A stretch of 64,000 nt of DNA from Saccharomonospora piscinae. GTDB lineage: Bacteria; Actinomycetota; Actinomycetes; Mycobacteriales; Pseudonocardiaceae. The translations under genes were made by a program, and so were the position numbers. Every line of letters begins with the position of its first letter. The first letter of the stretch is position 1. Shown here one piece after another: positions 31,820 through 40,065 of this stretch. The notes beneath the pieces were generated by a model that was not told the DNA's origin, ran no database searches, and saw nothing but the letters and a program-made list of their open reading frames with translations. Where the stretch lies: positions 620,001-684,000 of the forward strand of contig NZ_VCEK01000001.1 in NCBI RefSeq assembly GCF_005862235.1. The letters run 5' to 3'.

Positions 31820-34699
31820 GTGACCGAGATCCGCTTTCGCCTCCTCGGTCCGCTCACCGTCGACATCGACGGCCACGACGTCGCACTCGGAGGCCCCAAA
31901 CCGCGGCTGCTGCTGGCCGCGCTGCTGCTGGAGGCCAACACCCCGGTCTCGACCGACACGCTCATCGACGTGGTGTGGCCCGCCGAGGCACCCCGTTCGG
32001 CCGCCGCGAACCTGCGCACCTACATCCACTCGCTGCGCCGGGCACTGGCGCAGGACCGGCTCGAACGCGGGCCGTCGGGCTACCGGGTCAGAGTCGCGCG
32101 GCACGAGCTGGACAGTACGGTGTTCGCCGACCACGTGACGGCGGCCCGCGACGCGATGGCCCGCGACGACCCGGCCACCGCACTGGACGAACTGGCGGCG
32201 GCCGAATCGCAGTGGCGGGGAGATCCGCTGCCCGACCTGCCCCACCACCACACGTGGGAACCCGCGCTGACCCGGCTGGTCGAACTGCGCCTGTCGGCGC
32301 GCGAACTGCGGGTCCGCGCCCGCTTCTCGCTCGGCGAACACCGCGCCGCGATCCCCGAACTGCGCGAGCTCGTGGCCGGGCACCCGCTGCGCGAGGAGCT
32401 GTGGGCACAACTCGTCGTCGCGCTCGACCGCTGCGGCAGGCGCGCGGAGGCACTGGACGCCTACCACGAGGCCGAACGGGTGCTCCGCGAGGAACTCGAC
32501 GCCGCACCGGGGCGCACCCTGAACGCCGCGGGCGCGGCCCTGGCCTCGCCCGCCGCCCCGCCGCCACCACGCCGTGCCCCGGCAGGCGGCCGGTCCCTGT
32601 GCCAGCTCCCCCTCGACCTGCCCGATCTCACCGGGCGCGAGGCCGAGATCGCCGAACTCACCGCCCTCGCGCGGCGGCGCAGGTCCGCGAACGCGCCCAC
32701 CGTCGTCGTCCTGTCCGGACAGCCCGGGGTGGGCAAGTCCAGCCTCGCCGTCCACGTCGCACACCAGCTGCGCGGCGACTTCCCCGACGGGCACCTGCAC
32801 GTGGACCTCGCGGGAACGTCGACCGAGCCGCGCTCACCGCACGACGTGCTGGCGGAGTTGCTGCGATCACTCGGCACCCCGGAGTCCGCGTTGCCACCCA
32901 CCGAGGCGGAACGCGCGGCGGCACTGCGCTCGGCCTTGTCCGCGGTGTCGTTGTGCCTCGTCTTCGACGACGCGGCGAGTGCCGCGCAGGTGCGCCCACT
33001 GCTGCCCGGCGCAGGCACCTCCGCCGTCATCGTGACCACCCGCGCGCGCCTTCCCGACCTCACGGGAGTACACCACCTCGGCCTCGACGTGCTCGGCCCG
33101 GATGCCGCGCGACAGTTCTTCACGCGCCTCGTCGGCGCTCGGCGCGTCGCGGGCGAACCGGACGCCGCCGACGAGATCGTGCGACGCTGCGGGCGGCTGC
33201 CGCTCGCGTTGCGGGTGGCGGGTGCGCGGCTGGCCCACCGCAGGCACCTGTCACTGGCACTGTTCGCGGAGCGGGTGGCCGACGAACGCCGCAGGCTCGA
33301 CGAGTTGCGCGTCGGCGAACTCGCGGTGCGAGCCTGTGTCGAGCTGAGCTACGCCCGGCTCCGCCCCGCCACCGCGGCCGTGTTCCGCCGGCTGGGCACT
33401 CTCGGGCCCGTCAGCTTTCCCTCGTGGGCGGCGGACGCGGTGCTCGGCACCGACGGGGACGAGGCACTCGACGAACTCGTCGACGCCCACCTCGTGGATC
33501 TGGTGGGCACCGACGCCACCGGTTCGGCCCGTTACCGGATGCATGACCTGCTGCGGTGCTACGCCACCGACCGTGCCGACGAGGCCGATCACGACAGTGT
33601 GCGCCGCATGGTCGAGGGCTACTACACGATCGCCGCCACCGCCGCCGCGCGCATGCCCGTCCGGTTCTTCGGTGTCACCCCGACTCCGGTGCCGGACGGG
33701 TACTGGCAGCCTCCCGGGCTCGACCGGCTGGTGCGCGACCCGGTGGCGTGGTTCGACGCGGAGCACGCCACGGCGGCGGCTCTGGTCGAATGGGGCACCC
33801 GGCAGGATGCCGACGGCCCGGCCTGGCGACTCACCACGGCACTCACGCCCTACTACGACCTGCGCAACCGCTGGGAGGACTGGCTTCGCACGGGGCAGCT
33901 CGCCCTCGAGGCCACCCGCCGCGCCGACGACCCGCACGGCGAGGCGATCGTGCTGCGGGACCTCGGGCAGGTTCACGTGTACCAGGACCGCTACCGCGAG
34001 GCGGTCGAGCTGTTCGAGCGAGCGGTCCGGCTGTTCCGGACCACCGGCGACCCACAGGGTGAGGCCGTGGCCCTCGCGGGACTCGGCACGGTGGCCCGGA
34101 TTCGCGGCGAGCGCCACCACGCACTCCGCCACAGCCGCAGAGCGCTGGCGCTGTTCACCACCGCAGGCGATCTCTACGGTGAGGCCGTGGCCCGTATCGC
34201 CGTCGGCACCGTGCAGCTGGCGGAGGGCAGGCTCGACGAGGCCGAGGCCACCTTCGCCGAGTCGTACGCCCTCGCCTCGGCCATCGGTGACCGGCACCGC
34301 GCGGCGCACGTCCTGCAGCGGCAGGCCCTGCTGTACCGCGAGCGGGGCAGGCTCGGCGCCGCGCGCCAGCGGCTCGACCAGGCGATCGCGGTCTTCGACG
34401 ACCTCGGGGACGACCACTGCGCGGGCTACGCACAGCAGAGCCTCGGCGAACTGTGCCTGAGCAGCGGTGACCTGGCCCATGCGCAACTGCTGCTGGGCAA
34501 CTCGCTGGCGGTACACCGCGGTTCGGGTGACCGGCGCTCGGAGGCGGTGGTGTCCCAGCGCCTCGGCGAGCTGCACGAGTCGCTGGGACACCACGCCGCC
34601 TCCCGCGAGTACTACGAGCAGGCGCTGGCCCTCTGGCGGGAACTGGCGGCCTCTCCCCAGCAGTCGGTCGTCGAACAGCGCCTCGCGCGCGACGCCTGA
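31820..34699 (+). CDS. SARP/AfsR-type regulator with NB-ARC and TPR domains
   Basis: This 959-residue protein has an OmpR-like winged helix (about 1-95, RFRLLGPLTV), a bacterial transcriptional activation domain (about 95-245), and an NB-ARC ATPase with Walker A GQPGVGKS near residue 300 and VFDDA as Walker B. A C-terminal TPR array follows from about 680. Such proteins activate secondary-metabolite or developmental genes in actinomycetes. It starts at GTG 31820. No biosynthetic cluster is next to it, so a global (AfsR-like) role is more likely than a pathway-specific one. Confidence 0.85.
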   Translation: MTEIRFRLLGPLTVDIDGHDVALGGPKPRLLLAALLLEANTPVSTDTLIDVVWPAEAPRSAAANLRTYIHSLRRALAQDRLERGPSGYRVRVARHELDSTVFADHVTAARDAMARDDPATALDELAAAESQWRGDPLPDLPHHHTWEPALTRLVELRLSARELRVRARFSLGEHRAAIPELRELVAGHPLREELWAQLVVALDRCGRRAEALDAYHEAERVLREELDAAPGRTLNAAGAALASPAAPPPPRRAPAGGRSLCQLPLDLPDLTGREAEIAELTALARRRRSANAPTVVVLSGQPGVGKSSLAVHVAHQLRGDFPDGHLHVDLAGTSTEPRSPHDVLAELLRSLGTPESALPPTEAERAAALRSALSAVSLCLVFDDAASAAQVRPLLPGAGTSAVIVTTRARLPDLTGVHHLGLDVLGPDAARQFFTRLVGARRVAGEPDAADEIVRRCGRLPLALRVAGARLAHRRHLSLALFAERVADERRRLDELRVGELAVRACVELSYARLRPATAAVFRRLGTLGPVSFPSWAADAVLGTDGDEALDELVDAHLVDLVGTDATGSARYRMHDLLRCYATDRADEADHDSVRRMVEGYYTIAATAAARMPVRFFGVTPTPVPDGYWQPPGLDRLVRDPVAWFDAEHATAAALVEWGTRQDADGPAWRLTTALTPYYDLRNRWEDWLRTGQLALEATRRADDPHGEAIVLRDLGQVHVYQDRYREAVELFERAVRLFRTTGDPQGEAVALAGLGTVARIRGERHHALRHSRRALALFTTAGDLYGEAVARIAVGTVQLAEGRLDEAEATFAESYALASAIGDRHRAAHVLQRQALLYRERGRLGAARQRLDQAIAVFDDLGDDHCAGYAQQSLGELCLSSGDLAHAQLLLGNSLAVHRGSGDRRSEAVVSQRLGELHESLGHHAASREYYEQALALWRELAASPQQSVVEQRLARDA

Positions 34700-34720
34700 C
34701 ACCCGGGCCTCCCACCGGGC

Positions 34721-35890
34721 TCACTCCATGACGACGTCCTCGGGAACGGGGGTGTCGCTGCGCAGCGCCTCGAACAGTGCCTCCGACTTGCCCGGGTCCC
34801 ACTGTTCGGCCGACGCCGACGTCACCGGGACGGTGGTGGTGACCACACCGCCGTCACCGATGCCGCGCATGGCCCAGCCCAGCGCGACCAGGTGATGCAG
34901 GTGGTCGTCCGTGTCCAGGGTGAGCGCGTCGGGCACCGTGCCCAGCAGTGGCACCACGTCGAACGGGTTCAGCAGGGTCGCCGGACTGGCGATCTCCCCC
35001 GCGAGCGCGCCGATGAAGAGGCGCTGGTTGGCGACCCGGTCCAGGTCGGAACGGGGCGTGGACTCGCTGTAGCGCATGCGCACGAACCCGAGGGCTTGCG
35101 CCCCGTCGAGCGTCTGCCTGCCCTCCGGGATCACCACACCGGTCTTGCTGTCGCGCATCTCGGCCGGGATGTCGATCTCGACCCCGCCGATGGCGTCCAC
35201 CACCTCGGCGAAGCCGCCGAAACCGATCTCGGCGTAGTGGTCGATGCGCAGCCCGGTGGCCTGCTCCACGGTCTGTGTCAGCAGCGGCGCGCCGCCGAAG
35301 GCGAACGCGGCGTTGATCTTGTTCGTCCCGTGGCCGGGAATCGGGACCTGCGAGTCGCGGGGCAGGCTCAGCAGCGTGGGTGCCGTGTCGTTGTCCGGGA
35401 TGTGCGCGATCATGATCGTGTCGGTGCGCCTGCCGCCGGTGTCGCCGGTGGACAGCTCGGCCATGCGGTCCTCGTCGAGCCCTTCGCGCGAGTCGGACCC
35501 GACCAGCAGCCAGTTGGTGCCCTCCGCCGCGGCCGGCCTGCCCTCGTAGTCGCCGGGCAGCGCGTCGATGCGGTTGATGGAGAACTCCAGGTACAGCCAC
35601 ACCGCGCCGAGCAGCATCACGAACACCAGCAGCAGGCTCAGCAGCACTTTGCCGAAGGAGGGGCGCCTGCGCCGGGGCGAACGGCTGGGCGCGGGCGGGC
35701 GCCGGTCGGGCGGAGGCGGGGGCGGCTGCTGTCCCGGACGCGGCGCCACCCGGGTGGACTGCGGTGGGCGACCACCACCCCCACCCGGCACGGGCATCAT
35801 CCCCGCCTGCTGATGCTGCCGGGGACCACGCGGGGGCCTGCGGCCCGGAGGCGGAGGCCGGTACCCGCCCTGGTTCCCGCCGTAGGTCAT
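34721..35890 (-). CDS. LytR-CpsA-Psr (LCP) family cell-wall glycopolymer transferase
   Basis: This 389-residue protein has a cytoplasmic Pro/Gly/Arg-rich N-terminus (about 1-75), one membrane helix (about 78-98) and an extracellular LCP domain. The domain carries LLVGSDSRE, RRTDTIMIAHI, SLPRDSQVPIPG, KINAAF and VRMRYS, which include the conserved Arg and Asp residues. LCP proteins attach arabinogalactan or teichoic-type polymers to peptidoglycan from lipid-linked donors. ATG 35890 is favoured over GTG 35896 because GGAG is correctly spaced for it. It is convergent with the SARP gene. Confidence 0.88.
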   Translation of the reverse strand: MTYGGNQGGYRPPPPGRRPPRGPRQHQQAGMMPVPGGGGGRPPQSTRVAPRPGQQPPPPPPDRRPPAPSRSPRRRRPSFGKVLLSLLLVFVMLLGAVWLYLEFSINRIDALPGDYEGRPAAAEGTNWLLVGSDSREGLDEDRMAELSTGDTGGRRTDTIMIAHIPDNDTAPTLLSLPRDSQVPIPGHGTNKINAAFAFGGAPLLTQTVEQATGLRIDHYAEIGFGGFAEVVDAIGGVEIDIPAEMRDSKTGVVIPEGRQTLDGAQALGFVRMRYSESTPRSDLDRVANQRLFIGALAGEIASPATLLNPFDVVPLLGTVPDALTLDTDDHLHHLVALGWAMRGIGDGGVVTTTVPVTSASAEQWDPGKSEALFEALRSDTPVPEDVVME

Positions 35891-36002
35891 GGCCACTCCG
35901 TTCGATCGCGCCTGACTGGTGCACGCCTACCTAAGCGCATGCCACACAGACAGGACGCGCCATCCCCCCGATCGGTTGTGCCGACCATATGATCCATACC
36001 AC

Positions 36003-36180
36003 TTGACGTCCTCCCCCGCCTGAAGGCGGGGGATTCCTCCTGCCGCGTGTGCGGCTCCGGTGGGTTCCTGTTTCAACGAGACGTGCTCCCCGCTAGGCGG
36101 AGAGGCTGACCGTCTCTCCGCAGGCGTTTAACCTCTCCGCCCGTCCGGCGGCGAGGATGTTCTTCGCGGCGTTCAAATCC
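36003..36180 (-). ncRNA. Predicted omega/reRNA scaffold of TnpB
   Basis: In TnpB systems the guide RNA scaffold spans the 3' end of tnpB and the right end, and its guide is the flanking DNA. Here the stretch after the tnpB stop (36092 down to about 36003) ends in the 8-bp hairpin followed by GACGTCAA. The guide would start at about 36002 and read leftward. The left limit inside tnpB is a guess. Confidence 0.4.
36013..36032. repeat. Right-end hairpin of the IS element
   Basis: CCCCCGCC and GGCGGGGG form a perfect 8-bp stem around TGAA, typical of the subterminal hairpins recognised in IS200/IS605 ends. Confidence 0.7.
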
Positions 36181-37238
36181 CGGTCGTGCGTTGTTCCGCA
36201 GGGGCACGTCCATTCCCGGACATCGAGCGGCTTCTTGCTGTCTACCCGCCCGCACTCGGAGCAGGTTTGCGACGACGGGAACCACCGGTCGATGCGGTGC
36301 ACGACGCGCCCGTACCGGACCGCTTTGCCGTCCAACATGCGCAGGAACGTTCCCCACGCGGCGTCGTGCACGGATTTCGCGAGTTTCGTGCGGGCCAGGC
36401 CGGACACGGCAAGGTCTTCGACGTAGATCGCTTGGTTGTCGCGGATCAACGCCGTGGTGTTCTTGTGTGCCCAGTCGGTGCGCGAGTCGCGAACCTTGGC
36501 GTGCGCCTTGGACACCCGCAGGCGGGCCTTGGCGCGGTTGTTGCTGCCCCGCTGCTTGCGAGACAGGTTCTGTTGCGCTTTGCGGAGCTTGCGCTCGGCG
36601 CGGCGCAGAAACTTCGGAGACTCGATCGTCTTGCCGTTGGACAGCACCGCGAACGTGGCCAGGCCGAGGTCGATACCAACCTCGGAGTCTGTCTCCGGTA
36701 ATGGTTCGGGGCCGACGTTGACCACGAACGACGCGAAGTACCGCCCGGCTGCGTCCTTGATCAGTGTGACCGACGACGGCGCCGACGGCAGGTCCCGCGA
36801 CCAGCGCACATCCAGGTCCCCGATCTTCGCCGCGTACAGCCGTCCGTTCGGTCGCAGTGAGAATCCGTTGCGAGTGAGCCGGATGGCTTGCCGGTTGTCC
36901 TTGCGGGACCGGAACCGAGGGCGCCCAACACGGCGGCCTCGGCGTTTGCCGGACATCGAGTCGAACCAGTTGCGGTACGCCGCGCGGGCGTCCTGGCACG
37001 CCTGCACCAACGCCACGCTGGCAACCTCGGACAGCCAGGCGCGGACCTCGGTTTTCTTCGCTTCGGTGACGACGCGACGTTGCACATCGGTGTCTGACAG
37101 GCGCTCGCCCGCTTCGTAGGCGTCCTGTCTGACGCGGAGCGCGTCGTTGTACACCACCCGCGCGCACCCGAACGCCTTGGCCAGCGCGATGCGCTGACCG
37201 GGCGTCGGGTAGACGCGGAAGTTGTACCGAAGCTGCAT
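36093..37238 (-). CDS. tnpB: TnpB, RNA-guided nuclease of IS200/IS605 family
   Basis: This 381-residue protein has an N-terminal HTH/wedge region (MQLRYNFRVYPTPGQR), a split RuvC core with Asp in GIDLGLATF, Glu in YVEDLAVSGL and Asp in HDRDLNAAKN, and a zinc finger with CSEC and CPC pairs. All catalytic residues are intact, so it should be an active RNA-guided DNA endonuclease that helps retain the element. It starts at ATG 37238 within a palindrome shared with the divergent small gene. There is no Shine-Dalgarno, so translation may be leaderless. Confidence 0.92.
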   Translation of the reverse strand: MQLRYNFRVYPTPGQRIALAKAFGCARVVYNDALRVRQDAYEAGERLSDTDVQRRVVTEAKKTEVRAWLSEVASVALVQACQDARAAYRNWFDSMSGKRRGRRVGRPRFRSRKDNRQAIRLTRNGFSLRPNGRLYAAKIGDLDVRWSRDLPSAPSSVTLIKDAAGRYFASFVVNVGPEPLPETDSEVGIDLGLATFAVLSNGKTIESPKFLRRAERKLRKAQQNLSRKQRGSNNRAKARLRVSKAHAKVRDSRTDWAHKNTTALIRDNQAIYVEDLAVSGLARTKLAKSVHDAAWGTFLRMLDGKAVRYGRVVHRIDRWFPSSQTCSECGRVDSKKPLDVREWTCPCGTTHDRDLNAAKNILAAGRAERLNACGETVSLSA

Positions 37239-37258
37239 GGTGCCATGATAGCACCATG
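37236..37258. promoter_or_regulatory. Palindrome covering both divergent start codons
   Basis: CATGGTGC (37236-37243) and GCACCATG (37251-37258) form an 8-bp inverted repeat with a 7-bp spacer. The left arm holds the tnpB start codon and the right arm the start codon of the small RHH gene. The ATGATA spacer can serve as a -10 in both directions. A dimeric RHH repressor bound here would block both genes. Confidence 0.55.
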
Positions 37259-37423
37259 ATTCGACTTGGCTTACGCCTACCCGATGACCTGCACCGCGAA
37301 CTCACCAAGGCCGCCGAAACAGAAGGCCGGTCGCTGAACGCGCACCTGGTGTACCTACTCACCGCCGCGAATGCGGCTCCAGTGGAGGAGGTGCACCGCT
37401 GGGCACGCGAGGCCCGGAATTGA
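37256..37423 (+). CDS. Small ribbon-helix-helix (Arc-like) protein inside the IS element
   Basis: This 55-residue ORF begins MIRLGLRLPDDLHRELTKAA, an Arc/MetJ-type beta-strand plus helix, followed by EGRSLNAHLVYLLTAAN as the second helix. It starts at ATG 37256 and ends at TGA 37421-37423. TTGTAC at 37222 and CATGAT at 37244 give a promoter that would make the mRNA leaderless. It is divergent from tnpB by 17 bp with a palindrome across both starts, so it probably represses tnpB and itself. Similar short Arc-like genes beside tnpB are seen in actinomycetes as far as I recall, but I know of no functional study. Confidence 0.7.
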   Translation: MIRLGLRLPDDLHRELTKAAETEGRSLNAHLVYLLTAANAAPVEEVHRWAREARN

Positions 37424-37424
37424 T

Positions 37425-37458
37425 GCGCAAGCCCCGCCCTGAAGGACGGGGCTTGCGC
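37425..37458. repeat. Left-end hairpin of the IS element
   Basis: Arms 37425-37439 and 37444-37458 pair in 14 of 15 positions around TGAA. The hairpin lies directly after the RHH stop codon, so it can also end that transcript, and it shares its loop with the right-end hairpin. Confidence 0.7.
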
Positions 37459-37492
37459 GCTACGTTTCCCGGTCACGGCACCACAAGGCAGG

Positions 37493-38200
37493 TCAGAGCG
37501 GCAATTCGTACCGTTCCGGCGCCGCGCGGCCGAAGGCACCGGCCAGCAGGCCGTGTTCCGGCAGCAGGCCTGCGGTCTGGACCGCGAACTCCGCCGCCAG
37601 CCGGTTCCACACCGACCGGCGGCGCAGCAGCGCATGACTCTCCGCGGTGACGTCGAAGCGGGCGAGCCCGGCCGCGCGGGCGTCGGCGCGCCGGGCGTAA
37701 CGGTAGGAGTCCACCGGGCGGGTCACGCGGTCGAGCACGCCGTGGGCGAGCAGCACCCGCCGCCCGGTGACCGGCTCCACGGGCTCGCCCTCCGGCGTCC
37801 ACGGCGCGAACGCGCACACCCCGGTCACCGCCGGGTCGTCACACACGCGCAGGGCCACGCGACCGCCCATCGAATGCCCCACGAGCACCACCGGCAGCCC
37901 GGGGCGCTCATCGCGGATCCGCCGCAGTGCCCACCGGGCGTCCTCGACCGGGTGCCGGTCGGGCTCGTTCCAGCCGCGCACGCGGTTGCGCAGCATCCGA
38001 ACCTCGAGCCCGTGTGCGGCGCCCGCCGCCCACACCGCCCGGGCGATCGGCACCATCCGCAGGTACGCGGGCCGCCACGGGCGCACCGCGTCGACGCCGT
38101 ACTGCGCACCGCCGTGCAGCACCAGTGCCACGGCGGCGGGGCGGGTCCGGGCACGCCATCCGGACAGCGACGGGTCGCGCGCGGGCTCGCCGGGGCTCAC
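37493..38200 (-). CDS. Alpha/beta hydrolase
   Basis: This 235-residue protein has the alpha/beta hydrolase features: LHGG oxyanion loop (28-31), nucleophile Ser110 in GHSMGG, a late Asp in HGVLDRVTRP and His in ESHALL. It starts at GTG 38200, overlapping the ABC transporter stop by GTGA. The substrate is unknown. It is the second gene of a two-gene operon, and the IS element is inserted between it and the LCP gene. Confidence 0.82.
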   Translation of the reverse strand: MSPGEPARDPSLSGWRARTRPAAVALVLHGGAQYGVDAVRPWRPAYLRMVPIARAVWAAGAAHGLEVRMLRNRVRGWNEPDRHPVEDARWALRRIRDERPGLPVVLVGHSMGGRVALRVCDDPAVTGVCAFAPWTPEGEPVEPVTGRRVLLAHGVLDRVTRPVDSYRYARRADARAAGLARFDVTAESHALLRRRSVWNRLAAEFAVQTAGLLPEHGLLAGAFGRAAPERYELPL

Positions 38201-40065
38201 GCGGCCGACCGTTCCGTGACGGTGAACTGCGTGCGGTGCAGTTCCGCGTACCGGCCCTCCGCCGCGAGCAGTTCCGGATGCGTGCCCCGTTCGACGATGC
38301 GTCCCTGCTCGACGACCAGGATCTGGTCGGCCGCGCGCACCGTGGACAGCCGGTGGGCGATGACGAGCGCGGTGCGGCCGTGCAGCGCGTCGGCCAGCGC
38401 CTCGCCGACGGCGGCCTCGGACTCCGAGTCGAGATGGGCGGTGGCCTCGTCGAGCACGACGACCCGGGGGCGGGCCAGCAGCAGGCGCGCGATGGTCAAC
38501 CGCTGCCGTTCCCCGCCGGAGAGCCGGTAGCCCCGCTCCCCCACCACCGTGTCCAGGCGGTCGGGCAGCGAGTCCACCAGCTCGGCCAGCCGCGCCCGGC
38601 GCAGGGCGTCCCAGATCTCGTCGTCGGTCGCCTCGGGCCGGACGTAGGCCAGGTTCGCCCGGATGGTGTCGTGGAACAGGTGCCCGTCCTGCGTCACGAC
38701 CCCCACCGTGCCCCGCAGGTCCTCGAAGGAGACATCCCGGACGTCGACACCGGACAACCGCACCGCGCCGGAGTCGGGATCGTAGAGTCTCGCCACGAGC
38801 GAGGCGATGGTCGACTTGCCCGCGCCCGACGGCCCGACCAGCGCCACCATCTGTCCTGGTTCGGCACGCAGGCTCACGCCGTGCAGCACCTCCTCGCCGC
38901 CTCGGGTGTCCAGCGTGGACACCTCTTCCAGCGAGGCGAGCGAGTAGCCGTCGGCCGAGGGGTAGGCGAACCGCACGTCGTCGAACTCCACGGAGACGTC
39001 GCCACCGGGCAGCGATACCGGATCGGGTCGCTCGGTGATCATCGGTTTGAGGTCCAGCACCTCGAAGACCCGCTCGAACGACACCAGCGCCGTCATGACG
39101 TCGACCCGGACGTTCGCCAGCGCCGTCAACGGGGTGTAGAGCCGGGTGAGCAGCAGCGCCAGCGCCACGACCGTGCCCGCGTCCAGCGTCCCGGTGAGCG
39201 CGAGCCACCCGCCCAGCCCGTAGACGAGCGCCTGCGCCAGCGCCGAGACCAGCGTGAGGCTGGTCATGAACCAGCGGGTCAGCATGGCGGTGCGCACGCC
39301 GATGTCGCGCACCCGGCTGGCGCGAGCGCCGAACTCGTCGGCCTCGGCGCGGGGCCTGCCGAACAGCTTCACCAGTGTGGCGCCGGGGGCGGAGAACCGT
39401 TCGGTCATCTGGGTGGTCATCGCGGCGTTGAGTTCGGCCGACTCGTGCTGGAGGTCGGCCATCCGCCTCCCGATCCGCCTCGCGGGAAGCACGAACGCGG
39501 GCAGCAGCAGCAACGCCAGGAGTGTGACCTGCCAGGACAGCGTCATCATCACCACGAGCGAGAGGGCCAGCTGGATGACGTTGGTGACGAGGCCCGACAG
39601 GGTGGCGGTGAAGGTGCGCTGCGCGCCGATCACGTCGTTGTTCAGCCTGCTCACGAGCGCGCCCGTGCGGCTGCGCATGAAGAACGCGATGGGCATGCGC
39701 TGTACGTGCTCGAACACCGCGCGACGCAGGTCGAGGATGAGGCCCTCACCGATGTGCGCGGACTGCCACCGCTCGGCCAGCCCCAGAACGGCGTCCACGA
39801 CCGCGATCAGGGCGATGGCCACGGCAAGCCACACGACCGTGGCGGCGGCCTGCCCCCCGACGATGGCGTCGACGACCCGTCCCGCCAGCAGCGGTGTGCT
39901 CACGGCGAGCACGGCCGAGATCACCGTGAGCAGCAGAAACACCAGCAGGCGTCGCCAGTGCGGCCGGGCGAACCGGGCCACCCTGGCGACGGTGCCCCGG
40001 CGCAGGCCGCGAGGAGCGTCGGCGGAATTCATCGCCCCGCGCATCAACGACCACGTGTTGTCCAC
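38197..40065 (-). CDS. ABC transporter, fused permease and ATPase (exporter type)
   Basis: This 622-residue half-transporter has six membrane helices (about 30-330) and a C-terminal ATPase: Walker A GPSGAGKST, signature LSGGERQRLTIARLL, Walker B VVVLDEAT and the H-loop AHRLST. GTG 40065 was chosen from GAAAGGGG upstream; the frame runs open to 40239 without a ribosome site. It should homodimerise and export lipids, drugs or peptides. A roughly 20-residue insert (YSLASLEEVSTLDTRGG) precedes the Walker A strand and is unusual. Confidence 0.87.
   Translation of the reverse strand: MDNTWSLMRGAMNSADAPRGLRRGTVARVARFARPHWRRLLVFLLLTVISAVLAVSTPLLAGRVVDAIVGGQAAATVVWLAVAIALIAVVDAVLGLAERWQSAHIGEGLILDLRRAVFEHVQRMPIAFFMRSRTGALVSRLNNDVIGAQRTFTATLSGLVTNVIQLALSLVVMMTLSWQVTLLALLLLPAFVLPARRIGRRMADLQHESAELNAAMTTQMTERFSAPGATLVKLFGRPRAEADEFGARASRVRDIGVRTAMLTRWFMTSLTLVSALAQALVYGLGGWLALTGTLDAGTVVALALLLTRLYTPLTALANVRVDVMTALVSFERVFEVLDLKPMITERPDPVSLPGGDVSVEFDDVRFAYPSADGYSLASLEEVSTLDTRGGEEVLHGVSLRAEPGQMVALVGPSGAGKSTIASLVARLYDPDSGAVRLSGVDVRDVSFEDLRGTVGVVTQDGHLFHDTIRANLAYVRPEATDDEIWDALRRARLAELVDSLPDRLDTVVGERGYRLSGGERQRLTIARLLLARPRVVVLDEATAHLDSESEAAVGEALADALHGRTALVIAHRLSTVRAADQILVVEQGRIVERGTHPELLAAEGRYAELHRTQFTVTERSAA

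What the first reader, a model, noticed from the sequence alone, without database searches (positions are those of the whole stretch)
37236..37423. TnpB element with a divergent RHH repressor and a palindrome over both start codons
A 55-codon Arc-like gene, too short for usual gene finding, faces tnpB across 17 bp. An 8-bp inverted repeat places each start codon inside one arm, and ATGATA can serve as -10 for both leaderless transcripts. This is a compact autoregulated switch that could limit TnpB nuclease expression, with the element lacking TnpA. I do not know of a described RHH-TnpB control system.
Basis: partly seen in the sequence, partly recalled or inferred. Interest (0 to 1): 0.75.

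Follow-up and report, generated by a model that had tools for sequence, protein, structure and literature searches.

The report
Self-repressing RNA-guided nuclease transposon
A small mobile element carries an RNA-guided DNA-cutting gene and, where relatives carry their transposase, a tiny repressor gene whose likely binding site overlaps both start codons, so the element probably limits its own nuclease; the same pairing recurs in many actinomycetes.

Summary
A 55-codon RHH gene (37256-37423 +) faces tnpB (36093-37238 -) across 17 bp, with a palindrome (37236-37258) over both start codons. Both lie inside one 1,473-bp element (36003-37475); an 87% identical copy sits elsewhere in the genome. 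The arrangement recurs: 48 of 59 loci found with an RHH profile have an opposite-strand TnpB hit. In 36 loci with 17- or 28-bp gaps, an xAxxxT hexamer ends exactly 6 nt before the ATG (rhh 35/36, tnpB 33/36), as for leaderless promoters. Arms are symmetric there (3.89/6) but not in 13 tnpA-tnpB divergons (1.38/6). Half-sites change together with the three residues predicted to touch DNA. The exact operator occurs once in the 4.9-Mb genome. Best reading: an Arc/Mnt-type repressor in the tnpA slot shuts off itself and tnpB. Against: binding, repression and transcription are inferred; it is a minority module (1 of 30 window-like TnpB loci, the window itself); the nearest sampled relative lacks it; arms do not covary within the 17-bp class alone; 19 of 63 RHH-side TnpBs are short. 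I found no description in the library searched.

The parts
36003..37475 (-). Whole mobile element (LE at 37475, RE ...GTCAA at 36003), IS200/IS605-type, no tnpA
   Evidence: Second copy in the genome aligns over exactly 1,473 bp, 87% identity, no gaps, and the alignment stops on both sides
36093..37238 (-). tnpB, RNA-guided nuclease, 381 aa, active-site D/E/D and four zinc-finger Cys kept
   Evidence: NF040570 337 bits; PDB ISDra2 TnpB 8bf8 E 2.4e-67; residues tabulated
37256..37423 (+). rhh, 55-aa Arc/Mnt-type ribbon-helix-helix protein, in the slot where relatives carry tnpA
   Evidence: Pfam HicB/Arc; Mnt best PDB hit of the family profile; model with Arc, AmrZ, CopG and RHH antitoxins as top Foldseek ranks, best E 0.03; dN/dS 0.11
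37236..37258 (.). Palindromic operator CATGGTGCCAT G ATAGCACCATG spanning both start codons
   Evidence: single exact match of its core in the genome; arms symmetric in the RHH-tnpB set, not in tnpA-tnpB divergons
37245..37250 (-). Putative -10 of tnpB (TATCAT), 6 nt before ATG; leaderless
   Evidence: xAxxxT at this exact spacing in 33 of 36 loci
37244..37249 (+). Putative -10 of rhh (CATGAT), 6 nt before ATG; leaderless
   Evidence: xAxxxT at this exact spacing in 35 of 36 loci
37425..37458 (.). Left-end hairpin just after the rhh stop codon (16-nt arms, 94%)
   Evidence: inside the conserved element alignment
36003..36130 (-). Probable omega-RNA scaffold at the 3' end of tnpB, ending in hairpin 36012-36033 and ...GTCAA; the guide would start at 36002
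   Evidence: Fold z-score -3.2; only sub-threshold Rfam matches, e.g. RAGATH-18 27.5 bits, gathering 44.9

Best explanation
The element is a non-autonomous IS200/IS605-type transposon in which the place of the divergently transcribed tnpA is taken by a small Arc/Mnt-type ribbon-helix-helix repressor. rhh and tnpB share overlapping, leaderless promoters (-10 boxes 6 nt before each ATG); two RHH dimers bind the two half-sites (GGTGC) beside the start codons and block RNA polymerase in both directions. Because TnpB is known to cut its guide RNA out of its own mRNA, one operator would control nuclease and guide together. Shown here: gene pair, element boundaries, recurrence, promoter spacing, symmetric operator, co-variation of operator with predicted contact residues, rarity of the operator in the genome. 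Inferred: DNA binding, repression, leaderless transcription, and the benefit (low standing nuclease with a possible burst on entry into a naive cell).
For: 48 of 59 RHH loci have a TnpB hit on the opposite strand. -10 spacing 35/36 (rhh) and 33/36 (tnpB); 33/34 and 31/34 after merging identical gaps; other spacings 0-3, except 13 at rhh spacer 1 and 13 at tnpB spacer 11, in the rhh case TAGCAT-like words made of box and half-site letters. Arm symmetry 3.88/6 in 34 distinct RHH gaps versus 1.38/6 in 13 distinct tnpA-tnpB gaps, Mann-Whitney p 7e-6. Arms match within loci more than across loci: 31 distinct pairs p 0.0002, 28-bp class p 0.0024. rhh-side half-site identity 4.83/6 for the same contact triplet versus 3.18/6 for different ones, tnpB side 4.63 versus 3.15, 0 of 2,000 permutations each; partial correlation 0.58 after removing identity of the other residues compared. 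L118, L103 and L096 have TnpBs 81-85% identical, but triplets KTR/HSR/QTR and rhh-side half-sites GCCGCC/GGGTTC/GACACC. Contact positions are those of AmrZ Lys18/Val20/Arg22 (passages of PMC3325190; profile alignment to AmrZ). rhh dN/dS 0.11. Exact operator core once in the genome. The 18-bp distance between the two A of the ATGs equals the commonest TSS distance of bidirectional promoters in E. coli (passage in PMC12825309). TnpB makes its guide RNA from its own mRNA (abstract and passages of PMC10278001).
Against: No expression or binding data. Within the 17-bp class, to which the window belongs, the arms do not covary (p 0.29-0.30); L103, L096, L099, L093 and others are only partly symmetric. 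The 36 loci were chosen for gaps of 17 or 28 bp out of 76 entries. rhh is absent from the nearest sampled relative without it (L160, TnpB 71%) and from 29 of 30 window-like TnpB loci, and seven other-clade TnpB loci (L190-L192, L194, L201-L203) have no RHH hit, so it is dispensable. 19 of 63 RHH-positive loci gave TnpB pieces under 330 aa, and two longer ones (L070, L083) lack the zinc finger. Loci share ancestry, so permutations overstate independence. Part of the leaderless layout is also seen without RHH. No sigma-70-type promoter was found. Foldseek gave no match at E<=0.001.
Confidence: 0.8

Rival explanations
1. The RHH-TnpB pair is a toxin-antitoxin-like addiction module: RHH represses the pair and also binds and blocks the TnpB protein or ribonucleoprotein, as RHH antitoxins do with their toxins.
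For: RHH scores as HicB-like above cut-off and weakly as FitA- and RelB-like; the two RHH relatives inspected on cyanobacterial plasmids (of nine listed) sit beside PIN toxins; one TnpB element carries a Phd/YefM antitoxin-type gene in the same slot (L164).
Against: The window protein ends 15 residues after the second RHH helix (the model puts one more short helix there), and tails of relatives vary strongly in length and sequence, which does not suggest a conserved TnpB-binding tail; RHH-less TnpB loci are common.
Confidence: 0.1
2. The RHH is a passenger whose operator controls only itself; the tnpB promoter overlap is a by-product of the compact tnpA-tnpB-like layout and has no effect on TnpB.
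For: Leaderless divergent layout is partly present in tnpA-tnpB elements without RHH: -10 at 6 nt in 6 of 13 (tnpB) and 8 of 13 (tnpA).
Against: The palindrome is centred between both genes, one arm touches the tnpB start codon in both spacing classes, and tnpB-side half-sites track the contact residues about as well as rhh-side ones.
Confidence: 0.06
3. In this genome the module is a decaying relic: the association is real elsewhere but rhh/tnpB here are no longer expressed or useful.
For: Two copies only 87% identical, so old; no tnpA in the element; many related elements have short TnpB remains.
Against: Both genes are intact with dN/dS 0.11 and 0.24; catalytic residues kept; operator kept in both copies.
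Confidence: 0.1

Closest known systems
IS200/IS605 elements with TnpB (ISDra2; IS1341-like TnpB-only elements)
   Same: TnpB of the ISDra2 kind (E 2.4e-67 to 8bf8), hairpins at both element ends, structured 3' end of tnpB ending GTCAA
   Different: An RHH gene and operator where tnpA would be. In the passages I saw, Nety et al. (PMC10278001) name post-transcriptional control of TnpA and an inhibitory stretch of TnpB mRNA, no protein repressor
AmrZ and the Arc/Mnt repressors of phage P22
   Same: Fold, beta-strand contact positions, small size; AmrZ binds two GGC half-sites and represses its own gene (PMC3325190, passages)
   Different: Partner is an RNA-guided nuclease gene in a transposon. 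How arc/mnt are arranged in P22 is recalled, not looked up
RHH antitoxins of type II toxin-antitoxin systems (HicB, FitA, RelB, ParD)
   Same: Sequence class; autorepression would be expected (recalled)
   Different: No gene of a known toxin family in the element; the neighbour is TnpB, divergent rather than in one operon
TldR (nuclease-dead TnpB acting as RNA-guided transcription factor)
   Same: TnpB-derived locus with gene regulation
   Different: Here TnpB keeps its catalytic residues and the regulator is a separate protein (TldR recalled; only the reference was seen)
Bidirectional promoters with symmetric -10 (Warman et al.)
   Same: Overlapping -10 boxes and 18 bp between starts
   Different: Here both transcripts appear leaderless and a repressor operator is superposed

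Membership tests
IS200/IS605 TnpB element | TnpB with RuvC triad and zinc finger | tested here: met
   D/E/D and CCCC in window and copy; ISDra2 D191/E278 from passages of PMC8612924; D361 is recalled and falls on the second Asp of DRD by counting
IS200/IS605 TnpB element | Defined ends, more than one copy at different sites | tested here: met
IS200/IS605 TnpB element | Y1 transposase TnpA in the element | tested here: not met
   No TnpA hit in window 34001-40000; non-autonomous (IS1341-like) elements lack it too
IS200/IS605 TnpB element | omega-RNA at the 3' end and guided cleavage | tested here: inconclusive
   Structured RNA z -3.2, only sub-threshold Rfam hits; cleavage not testable
Arc/Mnt-type RHH repressor | Ribbon-helix-helix fold and Arc-like sequence | tested here: met
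   (the monomer model shows the helices, no strand; strands pair only in a dimer, recalled)
Arc/Mnt-type RHH repressor | Operator made of symmetric half-sites | tested here: met
Arc/Mnt-type RHH repressor | Half-site read by three beta-strand residues | tested here: inconclusive
   Co-variation supports it; physical binding not testable
Arc/Mnt-type RHH repressor | Represses own and neighbouring promoter | not testable with these tools
   Needs reporter or RNA data
Type II toxin-antitoxin system | Adjacent gene of a known toxin family | tested here: not met
   The other gene of the element is tnpB
Type II toxin-antitoxin system | Partner protein neutralised by the RHH protein | not testable with these tools
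   Needs protein work
TldR | Inactivated RuvC site | tested here: not met

The most novel reading that the evidence does not exclude
The tnpA slot of TnpB transposons is a swappable 'repressor socket': antitoxin-like DNA-binding proteins (mostly RHH, once Phd/YefM) replace the transposase, turning the element into a self-limiting RNA-guided selfish cassette; repressor-operator pairs diverge by contact residues into immunity groups, so that an incoming element of another group fires its nuclease in a burst while one of the same group is silenced at once.
Probability: 0.25. Interest if true: 0.85.

Novelty: new variant of a known kind. Interest (0 to 1): 0.7.

Why it matters
TnpB nucleases are relatives of the Cas12 ancestors and can break DNA at chosen sites, yet how elements keep them in check at the level of transcription is little known. 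A dedicated, self-encoded repressor with a readable operator code gives a direct handle: it predicts which elements cross-silence each other, offers a natural off-switch for TnpB tools, and suggests that transposase genes can be traded for antitoxin-like regulators.

Tried and rejected
A single-protein scan of the species genomes with the window RHH (seeded by exact 8-residue words) found no relative; the 8-row profile A1 was too variable for that tool, the 4-row A2 worked. Phage records: no match with the L070-type RHH at E 0.001. A generic sigma-70 scan found no promoter in the element. I first read the RuvC-III change (DRD to PRD, SRD or NAD) in other TnpB clades as loss of catalysis (table 'DEP/DES/DEN'), then rejected it: the ISDra2 catalytic Asp is the second one (numbered through; D361 itself is recalled), and it is kept in the 42 of 44 long RHH-positive TnpBs that have the zinc finger; L070 and L083 lack the finger. 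Two cyanobacterial plasmid relatives sit by PIN toxins, not tnpB, a Sulfitobacter one by neither. Search with the Phd/YefM gene of L164 (198 genomes of the phylum): four weak matches besides itself, neighbours of L216-L219 not inspected. Loci not used to build the tests: TnpB beside RHH in 6 of 10 (5 divergent, of which L209, L220 and L221 are one type; L224 co-directional), none in L222, L223, L225, L226. L211 fits box spacing and GAYRY arms; L210 keeps the arms but has lost the -10 boxes; L223 (triplet RTR) carries GACACTACAGTGGTGTC before its ATG, identical to L100 of the same triplet.

Rows dropped: of 76 oriented entries (59, 15, window and copy) 36 entered the spacing and operator tests; L080, L092 and L124, printed, were left out for a lost start codon or another gap; the rest were truncated, without TnpB, or spaced otherwise. 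In the tnpA control only TnpA hits over 50 bits were used, 4 loci gave no start pair, L009, L161 and L178 were left out as repeats, and L180 proved to repeat L140, so the 14 rows are 13. The TnpB tree used 70 of 96 proteins (330 aa or longer); 15 loci were skipped before that count because another id holds the same place.

Full report
WHAT IS THERE. The window holds a complete transposon copy at 36003-37475. Its borders follow from the second copy in the same genome (L006), which aligns over exactly 1,473 bp without a gap at 87% identity and then stops on both sides. Inside are tnpB (36093-37238, minus) and rhh (37256-37423, plus). TnpB matches guided_TnpB NF040570 at 337 bits and ISDra2 TnpB structures at 2.4e-67, with the D/E/D residues and four cysteines kept. 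The RHH matches Pfam HicB above its cut-off and Arc just below it; a profile of eight tnpB-linked RHHs finds Mnt repressor first (1.5e-8), then AmrZ and Arc. An AlphaFold model (pLDDT 88.6) has the two helices plus a short third one, and Foldseek ranks Arc, AmrZ, CopG and RHH antitoxins high, though with E of 0.03 or worse. Between the two copies rhh shows 15 synonymous and 6 non-synonymous changes (dN/dS 0.11), tnpB 0.24, so both look maintained.

RECURRENCE. A first class-wide search with the window protein (394 genomes) gave 30 loci; apart from the window itself, eight have TnpB in the locus (L011, L012, L016, L018, L024, L025, L026, L033). With the family profile (394 genomes), the 14 loci fetched for matches with E of 4.7e-11 or better all hold TnpB sequence; weaker matches mostly do not (of L054-L069 only L055). 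A scan of GTDB species genomes with profile A2 gave 59 loci; 48 have a TnpB hit on the opposite strand at or upstream of the RHH, one of them (L114) degenerate; of the 11 without, two lie at contig ends. Hosts with a TnpB hit include Streptomyces, Kitasatospora, Actinomadura, Nonomuraea, Thermomonospora, Planomonospora and Nocardiopsis. The TnpBs form at least three groups, the others about 24-34% identical to the window-like one; on a tree of 70 TnpBs the RHH label needs 7 changes (6 forced by well supported branches; shuffled mean 21). So rhh was probably gained or lost several times. Many of these elements are worn: of 63 RHH-positive TnpB loci, 19 gave pieces under 330 aa, some cut by contig ends.

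HOW COMMON. In samples not chosen by RHH: 0 of 30 TnpB loci from the PF07282 search (with a loose threshold L143 gave one 19-residue match of 15 bits), 1 of 30 window-like TnpB loci, namely the window itself (the second copy was not among the loci), and 8 of 20 loci of the L024-like clade, the query's own locus included. It is a minority module. The nearest sampled relative without it (L160, TnpB 71% identical) has only about 60 bp between its left-end hairpin and tnpB.

THE SLOT. In 19 of the 30 window-like loci a TnpA hit, sometimes a fragment, lies upstream of tnpB on the opposite strand, and the window's genome has one TnpB element with tnpA (L005). rhh therefore sits where tnpA sits in autonomous relatives. 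One locus, L164, has a Phd/YefM-type gene there instead (PF02604, 34 bits).

PROMOTERS. I took the 36 loci whose start codons are 17 or 28 bp apart (19 and 17 loci; the 11-bp difference is about one helical turn). An xAxxxT hexamer ends exactly 6 nt before the ATG in 35 of 36 for rhh and 33 of 36 for tnpB; at other spacings from 0 to 11 counts are 0-3, except 13 at rhh spacer 1 and 13 at tnpB spacer 11. The rhh ones are TAGCAT-like words made of box and half-site letters. This is the layout of leaderless actinobacterial promoters (recalled). In the 17-bp class the tnpB box is TAxxxT in 17 of 19, the rhh box TAxxxT in 1 and CAxxxT in 17 of 19, which suggests a stronger tnpB promoter; that is inference. 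In 13 distinct tnpA-tnpB divergons the box is at 6 nt in 6 (tnpB) and 8 (tnpA), so part of the layout predates rhh. In the 17-bp class the starts would be 18 bp apart, the distance that Warman et al. report as commonest for bidirectional promoters in E. coli (PMC12825309: abstract, outline and passages).

OPERATOR. Between start codon and -10 lie the half-sites. They are symmetric in the RHH loci (mean 3.88 of 6 identical in 34 distinct gaps) but not in the 13 tnpA-tnpB gaps (1.38 of 6, chance about 1.5), p 7e-6 (start codons of the control set were picked by nearness, those of the RHH set by spacing). Arms of one locus match each other better than arms of different loci (31 distinct pairs, p 0.0002; 28-bp class p 0.0024), but not within the 17-bp class alone (p 0.29-0.30), where 12 of 19 loci have GRYGY on both sides, so there is little to covary. 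In RHH proteins three strand residues read the half-site; in AmrZ these are Lys18, Val20, Arg22 (PMC3325190 passages), equivalent to residues 3, 5, 7 here by the profile alignment. Grouped by these residues the rhh-side half-sites fall into classes: RGR with GGTGC (window and copy), RSR and RAR mostly with GAYGY, KTR with GCCGYC (8 of 8), NNR with GTAGCC/GCAGCC or GGCTGC (partly direct repeats at 11 bp), HNR with GGGACC, HSR with GGGTTC, QTR and RTR with GACACC. Same-triplet loci agree at 4.83 of 6 positions, others at 3.18 (0 of 2,000 permutations), and a partial correlation of 0.58 remains after removing the identity of the other residues compared. KTR with GCCGYC occurs with two different TnpB groups (L104 and L118 versus L082, L085, L094 and others), so the operator follows the repressor, not the nuclease. 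In this genome the exact operator core occurs once; the other element copy is one of three one-mismatch hits; the 33 hits up to two mismatches are close to background (29). The repressor looks dedicated to the element.

MECHANISM. Most likely the RHH binds as two dimers to the two half-sites, covering both -10 boxes and both start points, and so represses rhh and tnpB together. Since TnpB cuts its guide RNA from its own mRNA (PMC10278001: abstract and passages), one operator would set both nuclease and guide. The biological gain is inferred: low standing nuclease, perhaps a burst when the element enters a cell without repressor.

NOVELTY. Library searches for TnpB with ribbon-helix-helix, RHH, CopG, autoregulat plus IS605, leaderless, and divergently / transcriptional repressor / IS200 gave a few papers each; I read passages of four and saw the others as listings only. 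A stricter search returned nothing. None of what I saw describes an RHH-TnpB module; most subscription papers and preprints are not in the library. RefSeq names the gene 'Arc family DNA-binding protein' next to 'transposase' in two plasmids, so the gene is known to annotation but I found the pairing undescribed. The parts are known kinds; the combination is a new variant.

Noticed in passing
L107, L112, L113, L117, L119 around 2485-2730: Five Streptomyces contigs carry an rhh of this family with no convincing tnpB in the 2.5 kb upstream (best tblastn E 0.005), directly upstream of a gene that in L113 is an NAD(+) synthase; the rhh stop overlaps its GTG start, and a palindrome GATGCCAC-C-GTGGCATC lies upstream. 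Possible domestication; pN/pS of rhh 0.53 pooled over pairs (nadE 0.07) is weak evidence of constraint.
   Followed up: partly
L164 / L215: A Phd/YefM antitoxin-type gene occupies the same divergent slot next to a window-like tnpB: a second, unrelated repressor class, seen once.
   Followed up: partly
L224 242-1572: In a viral-collection contig an rhh and a tnpB lie in the same direction, adjoining or overlapping, with a TATGAT box 6 nt before an ATG of rhh and a CACCC/GGGTG inverted repeat just upstream.
   Followed up: no
L024-like and L033-like TnpBs: RHH-bearing TnpBs of two clades lack the first Asp of the DRD motif (SPRDKNSAR, CNADLNAS) but keep the second; perhaps the RIII-r rearrangement type named in PMC10278001.
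   Followed up: partly
L212, L213: RHH relatives on a Synechocystis and a Picosynechococcus plasmid pair with PIN-family toxins, hinting at an antitoxin origin of the repressor.
   Followed up: no
L190-L192, L194, L201-L203: L024-like TnpB loci with no RHH or TnpA hit; some keep left-end sequence like that of RHH-bearing relatives, as if rhh had been deleted.
   Followed up: partly
L223 around 2430-2501: Viral-collection contig with an rhh of the RTR class and its perfect GACACTAC-A-GTGGTGTC palindrome but no TnpB hit; the divergent neighbour starting at 2463 is an unidentified 231-aa protein.
   Followed up: no
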